Source: a virus. Taken from it: 33,645 bases of DNA. Positions 25,513 to 33,645 of this stretch are shown one piece after another. Positions within the stretch are counted from its first letter, which is position 1; every line of letters starts with the position of its first letter. The stretch spans positions 1 through 33,645 of the IMG/VR virus record IMGVR_UViG_3300042860_000073; one strand, given 5' to 3'. A program made the translations under genes and the position numbers. The notes under the pieces were generated by a model. That model saw only the letters and a program-made list of their open reading frames with translations. It searched no databases and was not told the DNA's origin.

Positions 25513-25606
25513 CAGTTAACTCCAATGCTTTGTTTATCAGGTGTAGTGGTGTGGGTACGCCTTCACGCACCTTGTCAAGTAGTTTCATGGCTTCATAGTG
25601 GCTCAC
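25487..25606 (-). CDS. Tiny phage protein with LINKALELTGDL motif (39 aa)
   Basis: The GTG start (25604-25606) directly follows the stop of the overprinted frame, with GGAGA eight bases upstream. The product is MSHYEAMKLLDKVREGVPTP followed by LHLINKALELTGDLLTQDD. The same short helix motif recurs in small phage proteins that stand by replication genes. It could be a subunit-interaction peptide. Function unknown. Confidence 0.65.
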   Translation of the reverse strand: MSHYEAMKLLDKVREGVPTPLHLINKALELTGDLLTQDD

Positions 25607-26351
25607 TTAGGATTCTCCACGCTGTTGCTGCCACTTCTGGAACTTGTGCATTACCACAGGCCTTAACTCTGTCCAATCTTGAGGAAAGCCCATCATCCAT
25701 TCCGTGAAACTCGCTGGCAAATGTTTTCCAGTCATCAGTCGATAAGCACTTGTTAGCTTCGCTCCAAACTCCGTGCCAGTTTTGTGACTTGTTCTCACAA
25801 ATCTTTTGCCTGTGTAAGCTATTCCGTTTGTTTGACCTGTCATGTAATCTGTAGCTACGGGAGTGGGCCACCAACCAAAATCGTTCCCTTCTATGGGGTG
25901 CGCCAACATAGTCTGCTCCCACAATACCCCATCTCGCATCAAACCCCAGTTTGGAAAGGTCTGCAAGGACTCTGTCGAGTCCGTTATTAACGAGCATTGG
26001 GGAGTTCTCCACAAAGACAAATCTCGGTCTAACCTCGCCAATAATCCTCCCCATCTCTTTCCATAATCCACTTCGCTTTCCGTCAAGACCAGCCCCCCCC
26101 CCTGCTGCGGACAAATCTTGGCAGGGAAAGCCGCCAGATACAACGTCAACAATTCCTCTCCACGGCTTTCCGTCAAAGGTTTGCACGTCATCCCAAACTG
26201 GGAAAGGCGGGAGAAGTCCGTCATTTTGTCGGGCGCACAATACGCTTGCTGGGTAGGCTTCCCATTCAACGGCACAGACTGTTCGCCATCCGAGAAGTTT
26301 TCCCCCAAGTATTCCTCCACCAGCGCCTGCGAAAAGAGCCAACTCATTCAT
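25593..26351 (-). CDS. C5 cytosine DNA methyltransferase (252 aa)
   Basis: All key C5 methyltransferase motifs are in order: motif I FAGAGGG (7-13), the acidic EW (29-30), motif IV GGFPCQDLS with nucleophile Cys77, motif VI ENSPML (115-120), motif VIII RRERFW (154-159), and motif X GNAQVP (234-239). At 252 residues it is the compact form common in phages. It modifies cytosine in phage or host DNA, presumably to evade restriction. The ATG ending at 26351 follows AAAGGCGGTGT and overlaps the DUF1376 stop. It carries a G10 tract encoding Gly84-86, and its entire length is overlapped by another open frame. The +1 frame is open from 26347 to 25607. Confidence 0.92.
   Translation of the reverse strand: MNELALFAGAGGGILGGKLLGWRTVCAVEWEAYPASVLCARQNDGLLPPFPVWDDVQTFDGKPWRGIVDVVSGGFPCQDLSAAGGGAGLDGKRSGLWKEMGRIIGEVRPRFVFVENSPMLVNNGLDRVLADLSKLGFDARWGIVGADYVGAPHRRERFWLVAHSRSYRLHDRSNKRNSLHRQKICENKSQNWHGVWSEANKCLSTDDWKTFASEFHGMDDGLSSRLDRVKACGNAQVPEVAATAWRILSEPL
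25607..26347 (-). CDS. Overprinted second protein inside the methyltransferase gene (246 aa)
   Basis: This is the +1 frame of the methyltransferase gene, open for 246 codons. From about residue 42 (ATG ending at 26224) it resembles a recurrent phage protein with MTCKPLTESRGEELLTLYLA, FPAKICPQQ, SEVDYGKRWGG, WRTPQCSL, FPNWGLMRDGVLWEQ, WWPTPV, EWMMGFPQDWTEL and a KWQQQ end. I recall such proteins from phages with the same methylase type. The pieces line up with the methylase motifs: its last block is co-encoded with motif X, and its FPAK block with motif IV. Translation could start at 26347 (four bases after the methylase start, sharing its Shine-Dalgarno) or at the internal ATG. Alternatively it is only a by-product of conserved codon use. 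Function unknown. Confidence 0.6.
   Translation of the reverse strand: MSWLFSQALVEEYLGENFSDGEQSVPLNGKPTQQAYCAPDKMTDFSRLSQFGMTCKPLTESRGEELLTLYLAAFPAKICPQQGGGLVLTESEVDYGKRWGGLLARLDRDLSLWRTPQCSLITDSTESLQTFPNWGLMRDGVLWEQTMLAHPIEGNDFGWWPTPVATDYMTGQTNGIAYTGKRFVRTSHKTGTEFGAKLTSAYRLMTGKHLPASFTEWMMGFPQDWTELRPVVMHKFQKWQQQRGES
26093..26102 (-). repeat. G10 homopolymer in methyltransferase gene
   Basis: Ten C on the plus strand read as GGG GGG GGG G in the methylase frame (Gly84-86, first base of Ala87) just after the catalytic PCQDLS motif. Loss of one G would switch translation downstream into the overprinted frame. It is the longest homopolymer that I found in the window. Confidence 0.9.
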
Positions 26352-29525: not shown

Positions 29526-29896
29526 GTACCATCACCACTATGAGAAATCAGTATGCAACCCATACTGACTTCCGTGATTTCCAAGGTTTGATTCCCGAAA
29601 ATACGCATTTCTTGCCTAGCAACATAGACATGATTTGCGAGAGAAAGGGACACTTCCTAATCGGAGAATGGAAGAAACCTAACGAGAACATGGCTACTGG
29701 TCAGCAATTGCTACTTAAGGCTTTTGCTCAAGTGCCTAAATTTACTGTGTTAGTCATCATTGGTAACACAGACGGAGAAACAGAAGTTGGAGATGTGTTC
29801 CAAGTTGCTTTAGGTAAGTGCGTCAAGATAGGTAATGGTCTTCAATTTCTCAAAGACTTCTACGTTCTGTGGTACGAATTTGCAAACGCTACTTAG
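29522..29896 (+). CDS. Candidate PD-(D/E)XK-like nuclease (124 aa)
   Basis: The centre, NIDMICERKGHFLIGEWKKP, has Asp followed by E-W-K about 12 residues on, as in the D-x(n)-ExK core of restriction-fold nucleases. LKAFAQVPKFTVLVIIGNTD adds a helix and strand typical of that fold. It is the last gene of the early operon with ERF and the SSB-like protein, so a recombination exonuclease or VRR-like nuclease role fits. Homology was not verified. Its 3' end overlaps the convergent holin gene by eight bases. Confidence 0.55.
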   Translation: MSTITTMRNQYATHTDFRDFQGLIPENTHFLPSNIDMICERKGHFLIGEWKKPNENMATGQQLLLKAFAQVPKFTVLVIIGNTDGETEVGDVFQVALGKCVKIGNGLQFLKDFYVLWYEFANAT

Positions 29897-30305
29897 ACGC
29901 TACACCCTTTTGTTTCTCAAATGTTCTCATCCCCGCTATACCCAAGATTCCAGACAACATAACCCACAGTTGTTCAGCATCTAGTAGCGGAGGAGGAGAC
30001 ATTTCTGCAGGGACGTAACTCATAGCCTGTAGCCACTTCCATGCCCATCCAAGTATCGGATATAACAGGAACTGATAAGCAAGGGCTGCTGCGCCAATCC
30101 ACCCCACCGCAGGACGCCACCCAGACACAAACAAGCTAGAACTCTTGGCTTCTTCCTTGTTAACTTGAATTTGCGCTATGTCGATAGCTTGGTCTAGCTT
30201 CCTGTTCTCAATCTCCAACTGCATTTTCTCTTTGTCAGTTGTGATTAAGTCCCCTGCTACCTTACCCACAGAGTCAATGATTGAGGAAATATTAAGTAAG
30301 TTCAT
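29889..30305 (-). CDS. Three-TM type holin (138 aa)
   Basis: The N-terminal half (residues 1-55) is charged and helical. Membrane segments follow: GWIGAAALAYQFLLYPILGW (about 67-87) with a flanking aromatic part, and LWVMLSGILGIAGM (about 112-126). The GWRPAVGW motif is the hallmark of the Holin_3TMs family. It forms inner-membrane lesions that release the endolysin, whose gene is directly upstream with a four-base overlap. Confidence 0.88.
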   Translation of the reverse strand: MNLLNISSIIDSVGKVAGDLITTDKEKMQLEIENRKLDQAIDIAQIQVNKEEAKSSSLFVSGWRPAVGWIGAAALAYQFLLYPILGWAWKWLQAMSYVPAEMSPPPLLDAEQLWVMLSGILGIAGMRTFEKQKGVASK

Positions 30306-30811
30306 TTCAGTCCTGACAATGTACGATTAACCCAACCTAACAAGAACTTAGACTGCGTTCTGTTCTTATTGCAAATCTCAGCGTATCTGGCAATCTTGGC
30401 TAAAGCATAAGACTTACGAAAGTCTCCACCATTCTGATTGTTTAACAACTCAATAGTCTTAGCACCCATACCACCATCAGGAGTGGCATTAACAACGATT
30501 TGAGCAATCTTTACAGCCATAGACATACCAGCGTTAACCCCAAAGTTAAAAATGCTACTGGCGACCTCCTGTGAGGCTATCTCGTCCCCTCGCATCTTGT
30601 CCCAGAACTCACGCTTGTAGAACTCACGGACTAGTGGTGTAGCACCGCCAAAGTCTTTTCTGTCAATCAATGCCCAACCATCCCATTGAGGATTCTTGTT
30701 ACGAGCAATACCTGCGTAGGTCATCCCACCAGTATCACCCTCAACATCATGAAGGACATAACCGCCTTCATCCTTCATCATTTGCTCAAAAGCAGGTAAA
30801 AAAGTAGCCAC
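30302..30811 (-). CDS. GH108 endolysin with C-terminal PG-binding domain (169 aa)
   Basis: DEGGYVLHDVEGDTGGMTYA has the glycoside hydrolase 108 catalytic Glu15 (EGGY) and the GDTGGMTYAGI motif (25-35). SSIFNFGVNAGMS and a C-terminal part of the PG_binding_3 type follow (AKTIELLNNQNGGDFRKSYA). It has no signal peptide, so it needs the holin. It cleaves peptidoglycan glycan strands at lysis. Confidence 0.93.
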   Translation of the reverse strand: MATFLPAFEQMMKDEGGYVLHDVEGDTGGMTYAGIARNKNPQWDGWALIDRKDFGGATPLVREFYKREFWDKMRGDEIASQEVASSIFNFGVNAGMSMAVKIAQIVVNATPDGGMGAKTIELLNNQNGGDFRKSYALAKIARYAEICNKNRTQSKFLLGWVNRTLSGLK

Positions 30812-30812
30812 G

Positions 30813-31544
30813 TTACTCCTCCGACATATCAGTTGAAGCCAAGTTAATCCGAGTCTTTAAGGCAGCAATATCCTCTGGCTTTTCCTTAAACCCAATTGCT
30901 ACATACCCTGCAAACTTACCCATATCTGGGGGGATAGAGCCTCTACACATGAACTTAACACCTTGCTTAACACCCCACTCTCCCACCTTAGATGAGGGGT
31001 TGAACTCCTCACACAGAACTTCTCCGTTCAGCATAGCAACCATTGCGCTGTTTCTATCTGCTGATGCGTTAAACAAAGAAGTTACAGTTCCTTCCATTGA
31101 CTTCTCTCTTGAGCCATCAATGTTAAGAGCCAAGACAGTAGTGCGTGAGTTTGTTGCTAGGTTAGCTTTGTGAACCAATAAAACTACGCCATCTACGTCT
31201 TTAAGTAGGCTACGAGCAGGGGTAAGGAGTGCTTCTTGTTTAGCAAGTTGAGGCATCTTGTCCTGAGTCGTAATGGCTTGTAGGATGACCTGCCTAGAAT
31301 CCCAAGCAAAGTAGCCAGCAAACGCTAGGAACGACAACAGGATAACTGTAAACAGCTTGAAGGGGTTATCTACCCACTCAATCAAACCTATGACTTTACC
31401 AAGGGTGCTATCGTCTTTCTTGGTTTCTGGTTTGGAAGGCGCAGTAGGGGCAGCAACAGATACATTGATAGTCTGTTCGGCTTTAGGTTTAGGTGTTCTG
31501 CGCTTAACAGGGGCTACCTTTGCAGGGGGTTTTTTTGTAACCAT
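30813..31544 (-). CDS. Single-pass membrane protein of lysis module (243 aa)
   Basis: A basic Pro/Lys/Ala-rich N-terminus (1-45) precedes one membrane segment, PFKLFTVILLSFLAFAGYFA (61-80), and a C-terminal domain of about 160 residues with HKANLATNSRTTVLALNIDG and MCRGSIPPDMGKFAGYVAIG. With N-terminus in, the domain would face the periplasm. It lies one base from the endolysin start. It might assist or time lysis, or act in superinfection exclusion. No family name known. Confidence 0.65.
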   Translation of the reverse strand: MVTKKPPAKVAPVKRRTPKPKAEQTINVSVAAPTAPSKPETKKDDSTLGKVIGLIEWVDNPFKLFTVILLSFLAFAGYFAWDSRQVILQAITTQDKMPQLAKQEALLTPARSLLKDVDGVVLLVHKANLATNSRTTVLALNIDGSREKSMEGTVTSLFNASADRNSAMVAMLNGEVLCEEFNPSSKVGEWGVKQGVKFMCRGSIPPDMGKFAGYVAIGFKEKPEDIAALKTRINLASTDMSEE

Positions 31545-31783
31545 TATGCGTATAAGTCCACTTTGCGGTTGGTAAAAATCTCTAGGTTAAGTTGATTGCG
31601 TTCTGCCTTCTTTACATACAACTCAAACTCAAGAGCATCAATTTTGTCATCCATCTTCTTCATCTTTAACGCTTGCTTGTAGTCCTCAGTCATCTTTTCA
31701 GCCCTACGCTCAAGCACATCTGTTTTAGTTGGATAGCCCTCTGGTTGCACCATTGGATACCATTTATACAAAGGCGGTATCAT
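31544..31783 (-). CDS. Coiled-coil protein of lysis module (79 aa)
   Basis: After MIPPLYKWYPMVQPEGYPTK, residues 24-70 form a charged heptad pattern (LERRAEKMTEDYKQALKMKK). The start lies inside the end of the preceding tiny gene (20-base overlap), and its stop overlaps the next ATG (TAATG). No membrane segment. A scaffold or spanin-partner role is possible but unsupported. Confidence 0.65.
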   Translation of the reverse strand: MIPPLYKWYPMVQPEGYPTKTDVLERRAEKMTEDYKQALKMKKMDDKIDALEFELYVKKAERNQLNLEIFTNRKVDLYA

Positions 31784-31856
31784 GGTGAATAAAAATCCAA
31801 TAGATGTAATTCAAAGGTACTGCCAACCAAAGTAATATTTCAAGTACATCATTCAT
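31764..31856 (-). CDS. Tiny hydrophobic membrane protein (30 aa)
   Basis: MNDVLEILLWLAVPLNYIYW then IFIHHDTAFV has one membrane helix (residues 4-23). The ATG ending at 31856 overlaps the previous stop (ATGA). It is one of three tiny membrane peptides in a row. Holin-like or lysis-timing function is possible. Confidence 0.6.
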   Translation of the reverse strand: MNDVLEILLWLAVPLNYIYWIFIHHDTAFV

Positions 31857-32140
31857 TTCTTTTCTCTTATTTCCGCATTGCGGTAGCCTTCAATAATCTT
31901 GCTTCTAATTTCAGAGGAGTCTGCTGTACCAGCCCAACTCGCTAAGTTATTCCAAATGCTTGACAAGTCTTGGGTTGAGCAAAACTTTGCATTGTTCGTA
32001 AGCCACATTGACATTTGTTGATGCCTCAATGATGGGTCATGCACACGAAAAGCAATATTGTAAAACTCTCGCACACTACATAGGTCTTTAGCCGCAGAGT
32101 GAAGTGCAAGAACAAGAACAAGTGCTGCTATCCATCTCAC
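31853..32140 (-). CDS. Secreted small protein with signal peptide (95 aa)
   Basis: A GTG start (32138-32140) overlapping the previous stop gives MRWIAALVLVLALHSAAKDL, a classic signal peptide with cleavage probably near Ala17-Ala18. The longer frame from a TTG would bury this signal. The mature part has CSVREFYNIAFRVHDPSLRH and LTNNAKFCSTQDLSSIWNNL, with two Cys that could form a disulphide. It recurs in phage lysis regions, and I know no function. A periplasmic role is likely; there is no lipobox, so it is not a typical o-spanin. Confidence 0.7.
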   Translation of the reverse strand: MRWIAALVLVLALHSAAKDLCSVREFYNIAFRVHDPSLRHQQMSMWLTNNAKFCSTQDLSSIWNNLASWAGTADSSEIRSKIIEGYRNAEIREKK

Positions 32141-32229
32141 GACAAAGCCCAAACGATGATGTAAAAACACCAGATGACAGTCATACAAAAAAGGACTGCG
32201 CTAGTTACAGCAACAGCCCAATCTTTCAT
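32137..32229 (-). CDS. Tiny membrane protein (30 aa)
   Basis: MKDWAVAVTSAVLFCMTVIW then CFYIIVWALS is almost entirely a hydrophobic helix. Both ends are joined to neighbours by ATGA/GTGA overlaps. It could be a holin-like pore former or pinholin, but length alone does not prove it. Confidence 0.6.
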   Translation of the reverse strand: MKDWAVAVTSAVLFCMTVIWCFYIIVWALS

Positions 32230-32387
32230 TTCATCATCGCAAAGATAATCCCACCCATCCCTGTGAGCATGACCCCACTAGCTGCCATGATGACGTTCTC
32301 TAACCTTTTGATTCTGGCGCACAGCATCTCATATCTGAGTGTGCAGACCTGCTCATGGCTGTTTAGCCTAGCTTGAGTCTCATCCAT
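32226..32387 (-). CDS. Small membrane-anchored protein (53 aa)
   Basis: A polar N-terminus (MDETQARLNSHEQVCTLRYE) is followed by a membrane helix (NVIMAASGVMLTGMGGIIFA). Topology would be N-in or a type of small holin accessory (XhlA-like: short coiled coil then membrane helix). The start overlaps the previous stop by eight bases. The XhlA comparison is only architectural. Confidence 0.65.
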   Translation of the reverse strand: MDETQARLNSHEQVCTLRYEMLCARIKRLENVIMAASGVMLTGMGGIIFAMMK

Positions 32388-32526
32388 TTTCAGCTTCTTT
32401 AGGAACTTGCGCTATTGCTTGTTCTTCTATTTTTTTCCAAAGCACATATGCGTTGGAACTTGTTGGTAATTGACCAAGCACATTCATAATGAATTGCACT
32501 TCGTTAACGTCTAACTCTAATTTCAT
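32380..32526 (-). CDS. Small helical phage protein (48 aa)
   Basis: MKLELDVNEVQFIMNVLGQL then PTSSNAYVLWKKIEEQAIAQ is a two-helix protein that occurs downstream of fibre genes in many phages. The ATG ending at 32526 overlaps the 106-residue gene's stop (ATGA). Function unknown. Confidence 0.75.
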   Translation of the reverse strand: MKLELDVNEVQFIMNVLGQLPTSSNAYVLWKKIEEQAIAQVPKEAENG

Positions 32527-32843
32527 GCTTGACCCCAAGGCAATGCAGTATTTGCAGGGCTAACAGGAGGTGTAATCATTGAGTCAATCTGACCTTGAAC
32601 ACACGCTTGTGCGCTTGCAATAGCAGACTCAGGAATCCAACCAATGACGATTGCTTCTGTTAAGTCAGCATAAGGAGTTATTGCACCCTCTTGGTCAGCA
32701 GAATTAAATTGTGTATTGCCACCGATAGAGGCAGTATGTGTGCCGTCTACGCCAGTGACCTGCCATAAACAATTCACAACATAGTCGGGTGATGGTTGCT
32801 GGATTGTGTACATCGCTGTAATGCGGGTTGTAAAAGTGGTCAT
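32523..32843 (-). CDS. Fibre-downstream protein, intact paralogue of 1-171 (106 aa)
   Basis: Shine-Dalgarno AAGGACTAAC precedes the ATG ending at 32843. MTTFTTRITAMYTIQQPSPD then QVTGVDGTHTASIGGNTQFN is followed by TPYADLTEAIVIGWI and a Pro-rich end. The family is common after phage fibres. Its N-terminal half is nearly the same as the truncated protein at 1-171, so the fibre-downstream module exists twice. It lies eight bases from the S74 fibre stop. Confidence 0.85.
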   Translation of the reverse strand: MTTFTTRITAMYTIQQPSPDYVVNCLWQVTGVDGTHTASIGGNTQFNSADQEGAITPYADLTEAIVIGWIPESAIASAQACVQGQIDSMITPPVSPANTALPWGQA

Positions 32844-32851
32844 GTTAGTCC

Positions 32852-33645
32852 TTATGGATGGGTTGATTTGTAAGCGTCAAATTCTGCTTTGAGTTCTTGG
32901 ATGGCTTTAGTTAAAACAACAGTCATACGTTCATATTGGAAACCATTTACTTCGCCCTGTGCGTTGTAGCTGACTAATTGTTTAATTCCTTCTTGGTCTA
33001 CTTCATCAGCAATAAAACCAAAATGGTCTTTTGTTTTGTCATCATCTTCACAAAGAGAGTTGTAAATAACAGGTCTAAATTTGTTAATGTCTATTGATGC
33101 AATATCTCGAACATTTGTTTTGTATTTAAGGGCAGATGTTGATGTTCTTAATGCACCAGAAGCATCACATTGGACATTTGCCGCATTAGCAGTCGTATTT
33201 CCTGTAACACCTTCCATTCGTGTTACGCCAGTTGAATTGATATAAAACCAAGCTGTTCCATCACCATCGCTAAGTACAATGTTGTTACTAGATGTTCTTA
33301 TGTCTAGAGTGTTTCCTGTGACAGGAAGTGTTTGGTTGCCGTTGAAGTAGCCAAGAATGGAGTTCTTACCGCCACTTGTGATAGCCGAACCGGCATTACG
33401 CCCGATAAACGTATTGAATGAGCCAGAAGTCAAACCATTACCAGCACCAAAACCATAAATTGCGTTGTCAGTTCCGCTTGAAGACCCTTCTACAGCCCTA
33501 CTGCCGACAACAGTATTTTTTACGCCAGTTGCTAAATTACCTGTGGTGTAACCAATGTAAGTGCAATCATCTGCATTACTAGAATAACCCGCTTTATAGC
33601 CAATAAAAACACCTTGAGTGCCAGTTGTATTGCTATACCCCGCCT
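32852..33645 (-). CDS. Tail fibre with C-terminal S74 intramolecular chaperone, 5'-truncated
   Basis: The frame is open past 33433 to the right edge, so the N-terminus is outside the window; the internal TTG there is not the start. The visible part has repeats of the same adhesin-head type (AGYSNTTGTQGVFIGYKAGY; NTVVGSRAVEG), then VLSDGDGTAWFYINSTG, and the S74 domain from STSALKYKTNVRDI through KTKDHFGFIADEVDQEGIKQ to ERMTVVLTKAIQELKAEF. S74 domains trimerise the fibre and then cut themselves off at the start of the domain. Confidence 0.9.
   Translation of the reverse strand, partial: AGYSNTTGTQGVFIGYKAGYSSNADDCTYIGYTTGNLATGVKNTVVGSRAVEGSSSGTDNAIYGFGAGNGLTSGSFNTFIGRNAGSAITSGGKNSILGYFNGNQTLPVTGNTLDIRTSSNNIVLSDGDGTAWFYINSTGVTRMEGVTGNTTANAANVQCDASGALRTSTSALKYKTNVRDIASIDINKFRPVIYNSLCEDDDKTKDHFGFIADEVDQEGIKQLVSYNAQGEVNGFQYERMTVVLTKAIQELKAEFDAYKSTHP

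What the first reader, a model, noticed from the sequence alone, without database searches (positions are those of the whole stretch)
31764..32387. Chain of tiny membrane and secreted proteins upstream of the lysis genes
Four or five very small genes (30, 95 with signal peptide, 30 and 53 residues) are joined by stop-start overlaps of the ATGA/GTGA type and sit upstream of a 243-residue membrane protein, endolysin and three-TM holin. Two 30-residue single-helix peptides plus a coiled-coil-membrane protein could form a multi-part lysis or timing system with a second holin. No ordinary spanin pair is visible, so some of these may replace spanins.
Basis: partly seen in the sequence, partly recalled or inferred. 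Interest (0 to 1): 0.55.

Follow-up and report, generated by a model that had tools for sequence, protein, structure and literature searches.

The report
Phage lysis cassette with T4-like holin
The tiny genes belong to a conserved phage lysis operon whose large membrane protein looks, in predicted shape, like the T4 holin that times the bursting of the host cell, together with a small secreted protein that probably regulates or assists lysis.

Summary
In detail: on the minus strand, 32387-31764, genes of 53, 30, 95 and 30 residues are chained by 4-nt stop-start overlaps. m243 is the telling member: its predicted C-terminal domain matches the three T4 holin-T structures best among 1,000 PDB chains compared (Z 14.0, 13.6, 13.2; next, GAF domains, 12.9). 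A relative sits between antiterminator Q and lysozyme-Rz/Rz1 in Edwardsiella phage GF-2, and another in a T4-like phage without detectable T. By sequence m243 is not a Phage_holin_T member. The 95-residue secreted protein (sp95) is a conserved lysis-cassette member; its domain also occurs in bacterial proteins, some carrying a lytic-transglycosylase domain. It shows none of the spanin features tested. It has been kept through repeated exchange of neighbouring holin candidates, so whether it acts on a holin or at the cell wall is open. A new variant of a known kind: T-like holin cassette with an unnamed periplasmic partner family. Function is untested.

The parts
32523..32843 (-). DUF7936 protein, 106 aa; first gene of the coupled run
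   Evidence: PF25590 E 1.8e-15; 4-nt overlap with next gene
32380..32526 (-). about 48-aa ORF (p44), unknown
   Evidence: relatives in 16 ORFs of the 108 loci scanned; no Pfam or PHROG family of use
32226..32387 (-). cc53, 53 aa, heptad-like N-terminus and hydrophobic C-terminus
   Evidence: weak phrog_38642 match E 2.2e-4, unknown function
32137..32229 (-). tm30a, 30 aa, one hydrophobic segment
   Evidence: found in 19 of 23 loci at E<=0.05; selection weak
31853..32140 (-). sp95, 95 aa, signal-like N-terminus plus four-helix periplasmic domain with two invariant Cys
   Evidence: (23 and 453 confirmed relatives)
31764..31856 (-). tm30b, 30 aa, one hydrophobic segment, optional
   Evidence: 7 of 23 loci; pN/pS 0.28-0.34
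31544..31783 (-). cc79, 79 aa, charged, no hydrophobic segment, probably cytoplasmic
   Evidence: 22 of 23 loci; within 400 nt downstream of sp95 in 108 of 121 distinct cases; pN/pS 0.16-0.20
30813..31544 (-). m243, 243 aa: Lys/Ala/Pro-rich N-terminus, one hydrophobic helix near residues 61-83, GAF-like C-terminal domain; T-like holin candidate
   Evidence: phrog_31287 E 8.2e-23, unknown function; model and fold searches
30302..30811 (-). GH108 endolysin, 169 aa, GTG start after GGAGGAG
   Evidence: PF05838 E 4.3e-17 and PF09374 E 4e-10
29889..30305 (-). three-TM holin, 138 aa
   Evidence: PF11351 E 3.8e-20, phrog_3427 'holin' E 1.7e-27

Best explanation
The chain is part of one translationally coupled lysis operon. 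m243 is a holin that works like T of phage T4: a cytoplasmic N-terminus and one membrane helix form the pore, and a periplasmic GAF-like domain allows regulation from the periplasm. When m243 and/or the three-TM holin triggers, the GH108 endolysin reaches the wall. The tiny genes are accessories whose stop-start coupling ties their expression to the cassette. sp95 is exported, folds as a helical bundle probably held by a disulphide, and tunes lysis from the periplasm; tm30a, tm30b and cc53 are membrane accessories and cc79 is cytoplasmic. Shown here: operon layout, conservation, a predicted T-like fold, the holin-slot position of an m243 relative, constant cassette membership of sp95. Inferred: topology, pore activity, export and disulphide of sp95, its target, and the roles of the other small proteins.
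For: Three T4 T entries head the VIA-align list for m243 (Z 14.0/13.6/13.2 over 128-131 residues, rmsd 2.8-3.1), a guess written down before modelling. Of 29 BFVD matches at E<=0.001, 3 bear a holin name: 'Class III holin', 'Holin', 'T holin lysis mediator'. GF-2: Q, m243 relative, lysozyme, i-spanin with embedded lipoprotein ORF, with no PF11031 or PF11351 match. T4-like phage S13 has an m243 relative and no PF11031, PF24205 or PF11351 match (controls rang: T4, T5, PMBT1; T4; the window). sp95 overlaps the m243 stop by 4 nt in 14 of 126 distinct sequences and follows it directly in 19. All 110 distinct sp95 with 1.5 kb downstream have an m243 relative (65) or a two-hydrophobic-segment protein (45) within 2.5 kb.
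Against: No pore activity is shown. GAF domains score close behind T (12.9), so two of the three T entries are tied with them, and Foldseek ranks GAF proteins first, T at 14 and 45. Sequence: no PF11031, profile comparison with T 6%. A PF11351 holin is also present here. 52 of 143 m243 loci lack detectable sp95. sp95 has no RI similarity, and holin type changes at least 7 times on its tree, against a dedicated antiholin for m243. The 110-of-110 figure comes from loci chosen by sp95 or m243; in the 47 from sp95 scans it is 2 and 45. The two-segment protein is a holin candidate by position and hydrophobicity; its best lysis-family match is E 0.04.
Confidence: 0.55

Rival explanations
1. sp95 acts on the cell wall and not on a holin: it binds peptidoglycan or modulates a muralytic enzyme (the endolysin or a host lytic transglycosylase) and so helps or delays wall breakdown. 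m243 may still be a T-like holin; this rival concerns sp95.
For: The domain occurs in 18 bacterial contigs (all 18 confirmed by a profile of viral sequences); the three long ones scanned carry an SLT transglycosylase domain (PF01464). sp95 stays while holin type (13 changes) and endolysin family (9 changes) vary on its tree. An SLT endolysin limited by a small overlapping gene is reported for Firehammervirus (PMC7692668, abstract).
Against: In 14 of 126 distinct sequences sp95 is coupled to m243, not to the endolysin. No wall-binding motif was identified. The bacterial domain's function is unknown.
Confidence: 0.35
2. m243 is not the pore but a membrane regulator with a periplasmic sensor domain, acting on the three-TM holin.
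For: The window and many relatives also encode a PF11351 or similar membrane protein; the PF11351 protein TeaA of ICP1 has tested holin activity (PMC7182436 section 7 part 1). The GAF fold is a common sensor fold.
Against: In GF-2, IKEMa6-1 and S13 no PF11351 match was found, nor a hit of my two three-TM profiles in their loci; m243's relative is the gene beside the lysozyme in the first two. PF11351 absence is soft: it also missed MW202825, whose 168-aa ORF my own profile matched.
Confidence: 0.25
3. Some of the small proteins replace spanins.
For: No pair recognised in the window. In relatives, overlapping i/o-spanin-like pairs in 1 of 105 sp95 loci against 8 of 45 m243 loci without sp95.
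Against: L090 has sp95 and an Rz/Rz1 pair together. 37 of 45 sp95-free loci also lack a pair and 6 of the 8 positives are closely related GF-2-type records. sp95 lacks a lipobox and a second hydrophobic segment.
Confidence: 0.08

Closest known systems
Phage T4 holin T (PF11031; PDB 6psk, 6px4, 6pxe) and T5 relatives
   Same: One hydrophobic helix near the N-terminus, periplasmic-type C-terminal domain of the same predicted fold, two invariant Cys, placed next to lysozyme in T5 and in the m243 cassettes
   Different: No PF11031 match, 8% identity in the structural alignment, long Lys/Ala/Pro-rich N-terminus, second Cys placed differently in sequence
T4 antiholin RI (PF24205)
   Same: Size, secretion signal, helical periplasmic domain, Cys pair; RI works from the periplasm on T (PMC11413866, passages)
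   Different: No sequence, profile or fold match to sp95; Cys 33 residues apart, not 6; sp95 is kept beside different holin candidates
GTA_holin_3TM (PF11351), e.g. TeaA of Vibrio phage ICP1
   Same: The window's 138-aa protein is a clear family match
   Different: ICP1's neighbours differ: its adjacent ORF138 looks multi-TM and no sp95 or m243 relative was found in ICP1 by tblastn
phrog_31287 (unknown function)
   Same: m243 matches at E 8.2e-23, and the GF-2, S13 and IKEMa6-1 proteins are strong members
   Different: No function was attached to it before
Firehammervirus lysis inhibitor F379_024
   Same: A small gene overlapping a lysis gene that limits lysis (PMC7692668, abstract and passages)
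   Different: Not compared directly; no phage record but MW202825 matched sp95 by tblastn at E<=0.1

Membership tests
T4 T-type holin (Phage_holin_T) | Sequence match to PF11031 | tested here: not met
   No match for m243 at E<=1; hhalign with T alignment 6%
T4 T-type holin (Phage_holin_T) | Periplasmic domain of the T (GAF-like) fold | tested here: met
   Model only: T entries rank 1-3, Z 14.0/13.6/13.2, best GAF 12.9
T4 T-type holin (Phage_holin_T) | Single N-terminal TM helix, N-in/C-out | tested here: inconclusive
   One hydrophobic helix in sequence and model; orientation not testable here
T4 T-type holin (Phage_holin_T) | Periplasmic Cys pair | tested here: inconclusive
   Two invariant Cys; pairing and equivalence to T C175/C207 inferred, not shown
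T4 T-type holin (Phage_holin_T) | Lethal pore activity; inhibition by an antiholin | not testable with these tools
   Needs expression assays
RI-type antiholin | Sequence match to PF24205 | tested here: not met
   No match at E<=1; hhalign with RI alignment 0.2%
RI-type antiholin | RI fold | tested here: inconclusive
   No RI entry among the Foldseek rows shown or the 220 chains' best 50
RI-type antiholin | Binds a holin's periplasmic domain | not testable with these tools
   No complex prediction offered
Spanin (sp95) | o-spanin lipobox, or i-spanin TM plus coiled coil | tested here: not met
   Absent from the 126 distinct sequences listed by inspection; model shows a signal helix and a compact bundle; PF03245 not found in the record
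GTA_holin_3TM | PF11351 above gathering score | tested here: met
   73.1 bits against 24.8
GH108 endolysin | PF05838 above gathering score | tested here: met
   62.8 bits against 21.2

The most novel reading that the evidence does not exclude
A large, unannotated group of phages uses T-type GAF holins together with a new class of periplasmic lysis regulator (the sp95 family), whose domain is shared with bacterial lytic transglycosylases, so that lysis timing, perhaps lysis inhibition on superinfection, is controlled from the periplasm outside the T-even phages and largely independently of which holin is used.
Probability: 0.3. Interest if true: 0.75.

Novelty: new variant of a known kind. Interest (0 to 1): 0.5.

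Why it matters
Regulation of a holin from the periplasm is best documented for T4. Here a T-like holin candidate with hundreds of viral relatives (367 confirmed for the m243 query, 453 for sp95) is 'unknown function' in PHROGs and matches nothing in Pfam or NCBIfam. If confirmed, lysis timing could be annotated and tested in these phages. sp95, kept through repeated exchange of neighbouring holin candidates and endolysins, may be a lysis factor outside the usual holin, endolysin and spanin classes.

Tried and rejected
Spanin replacement: lipobox and Rz searches, not supported. RI homology of sp95: Pfam, profile and fold searches gave nothing. ICP1 antiholin ArrA: its gene name is masked in the text I read; the likely ORF138 looks multi-TM and unlike sp95 or m243 by eye. 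DNA-level search of the region in phage records: no match. sp95 relative in plasmids: no match. PDB sequence search with the sp95 profile: one hit at E 0.43. My first spanin scan was too strict, finding 1 of 6 GF-2-type pairs; one search relaxed it until 11 of 11 known pairs rang, so that 11 of 11 is not an independent sensitivity. The 164-aa membrane protein of most relatives is not a PF11351 match in the one scanned (L016; phrog_6637, unknown function), so I do not call it a holin family member. tm30a: selection too weak to argue from. Papers: the listings showed no title or abstract about m243/phrog_31287 or sp95; I opened five papers in part, and most subscription papers (including the T-RI structure paper) are not held.

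Full report
What is there. The stretch 32843-29889 on the minus strand is a tightly packed run of ten genes: DUF7936, an ORF of about 48 aa, cc53 (53 aa), tm30a (30 aa), sp95 (95 aa), tm30b (30 aa), cc79 (79 aa), m243 (243 aa), a GH108 endolysin and a PF11351 three-TM holin. Eight of the nine junctions overlap (4, 8, 4, 4, 4, 20, 1 and 4 nt); between m243 and the endolysin there is one base, and the endolysin start follows GGAGGAG.

Conservation. A scan of viral contigs with sp95 gave 23 loci. cc79 is found in 22 (the 23rd contig ends first), tm30a in 19 at E<=0.05, tm30b in 7. In relatives with nearly identical sp95 but no tm30b, the start codon of cc79 overlaps the sp95 stop, so tm30b is optional. 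pN/pS, window against 3-6 relatives each and overlaps with neighbouring frames not removed, is 0.16-0.40 for sp95, 0.16-0.20 for cc79, 0.28-0.34 for tm30b and 0.41-1.11 for tm30a. Further scans found 216 (m243 alone) and 367 (m243 alignment) relatives of m243 and 453 of sp95; only the best 80 of each are held.

Company of sp95. The held loci give 126 distinct sp95 sequences, of which 110 have at least 1.5 kb downstream. Within 2.5 kb, 65 have an m243 relative and 45 an 82-93-aa protein with two hydrophobic segments; none has neither. The loci were fetched by sp95 or by m243, so these proportions are biased: in the 47 that came from sp95 scans it is 2 and 45. The two-segment protein is a holin candidate from position and hydrophobicity; the one scanned (L016) has no convincing family. 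Endolysin families among the 110: 89 GH24-type, 12 GH108-type, 9 not recognised. A further membrane protein is recognised in 96 of 110: 89 of a 164-aa type that had no Pfam match in the one scanned, and 7 of the window's PF11351 type. Conversely, of 143 m243 loci with 1-kb flanks, 91 have detected sp95 and 52 do not. In 19 of the 126, sp95 directly follows m243, in 14 of them overlapping its stop by 4 nt. cc79 lies within 400 nt downstream of sp95 in 108 of 121 distinct cases with that much sequence; the 13 without include the most distant sp95 sequences.

m243. It has no Pfam or NCBIfam match and belongs to phrog_31287, unknown function. I noted its T-like architecture before modelling. An AlphaFold2 model of residues 45-243 from 50 sequences has mean pLDDT 84.7. 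Foldseek returns mostly GAF proteins; the first hit is a fusion containing such a domain (6oei, E 6.2e-7), and T appears at rank 14 (6pxe, E 6.6e-5) and 45 (6psk, E 1.5e-4, TM-score 0.68 by target). The finer aligner, applied to 1,000 of Foldseek's chains, puts the three T4 T entries first (Z 14.0, 13.6, 13.2) and GAF domains next (12.9 and below); only the first T entry is more than one unit above them. In BFVD 29 matches have E<=0.001: 3 named as holins (Class III holin of Proteus phage Stubb, Holin of phiP4-3, T holin lysis mediator of PS2), 3 as GAF-domain proteins, 1 'membrane protein', 1 'phage protein', 21 uncharacterised or unnamed. Sequence profiles do not join m243 to T; the best stretch, not significant, pairs the two membrane regions. 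Two Cys are invariant in m243 alignments; by the offsets of the aligned ranges one should fall near T C175, which is my inference. [quoted passage not shown]

Where m243 relatives sit. In Edwardsiella phage GF-2 the order is antiterminator Q, m243 relative, lysozyme, and an i-spanin ORF with an embedded lipoprotein ORF. Vibrio phage IKEMa6-1 has m243 relative, lysozyme and a spanin pair in the same order. Cronobacter phage S13 (Straboviridae) carries one near gene 24. PF11031 was not found in any of these three or in MW202825, with T4, T5 and PMBT1 ringing as controls. PF24205 was not found in S13, GF-2 or IKEMa6-1 (T4 rang), nor PF11351 in the four records (the window rang). The PF11351 absence is soft, since MW202825 has a 168-aa ORF that my own three-TM profile matched. 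Against a simple story, the window and most relatives have another holin candidate as well, and TeaA of ICP1 shows that a PF11351 protein can be a holin (PMC7182436, section 7 part 1).

sp95. In 56 aligned sequences M1, C21, R39, W46, C54 and G71 are invariant. The model (mean pLDDT 90.2) has a signal-like helix and four further helices; no PDB fold stands out. A genome scan found the domain in 18 bacterial contigs; all 18 are confirmed by a profile built from viral sequences only, E 6.2e-18 to 2.5e-12 for a nominal million sequences. Ten (L286-L295) are long proteins with the domain near the C-terminus; the three scanned (L286, L288, L292) have an SLT transglycosylase domain, and in L288 the gene lies between fliP and fliM genes on the other strand. 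Seven (L278-L284) are proteins of about 165 aa; L285 has the domain ahead of a sub-threshold matrixin match (E 0.02). On a tree of 110 sp95 sequences (95 columns, 'quick' method, half of the inner branches unresolved) holin type changes 13 times, at least 7 forced by starred branches, against 35 in shuffles, and endolysin family 9 times. Holin type is thus clustered but has been exchanged repeatedly while sp95 stayed. This argues against a dedicated antiholin for m243 and for a target that most of these cassettes or hosts share.

Spanins. None is recognisable in the window. In relatives an overlapping pair was found in 1 of 62 loci with sp95 and m243, 0 of 43 with sp95 alone and 8 of 45 with m243 alone. 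The single positive, L090, has m243, sp95, cc79, an Rz-like spanin (phrog_1327, E 4e-12), an embedded lipoprotein ORF and an endolysin. sp95 therefore does not exclude spanins and has none of their marks.

Mechanism. My best reading is a T-like holin with a periplasmic regulatory domain, used with or instead of another holin, and a coupled periplasmic factor, sp95, that tunes lysis through a holin or at the wall. In T4, RI binds the globular periplasmic domain of T, and that domain is reported to be needed for regulation and not for lysis (PMC11413866 and PMC12162936, passages). Layout, conservation and predicted fold are shown; pore formation, export and binding are inferred.

Verdict. It is a new variant of a known kind, with an unexplained partner family.

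Noticed in passing
window 25593-26351 and 25607-26347, both minus strand: A C5-cytosine methylase (PF00145 E 2.6e-30) is overlapped almost completely, same strand and another frame, by a 246-aa ORF without a Pfam match that still looks protein-like.
   Followed up: no
L286-L295, e.g. L288:4849-6261: Bacterial proteins with an SLT transglycosylase domain (three of three scanned) followed by the sp95 domain; in L288 the gene lies between fliP and fliM.
   Followed up: partly
L278-L284, e.g. L278:5806-6306: Proteins of about 165 aa in betaproteobacterial contigs whose second half is the sp95 domain; in L278 a FlaG gene lies nearby. Function unknown.
   Followed up: partly
L027:2977-3558 (Cronobacter phage S13): A T4-like phage with an m243 relative near gene 24 and no detectable T holin or RI antiholin.
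   Followed up: partly
L090:5247-5450: A 67-aa ORF with a lipobox (LTGC) between cc79 and a membrane protein in the one sp95 cassette that has Rz/Rz1; no Pfam or PHROG match.
   Followed up: no
L107: The contig carries m243, the membrane-protein gene and GH24 again on the opposite strand, probably an inverted assembly artefact.
   Followed up: no
window 32852-33645, minus strand: The tail-fibre-like ORF with a weak Peptidase_S74 chaperone end (E 5.7e-5) runs off the window, so the record is open at this end.
   Followed up: no
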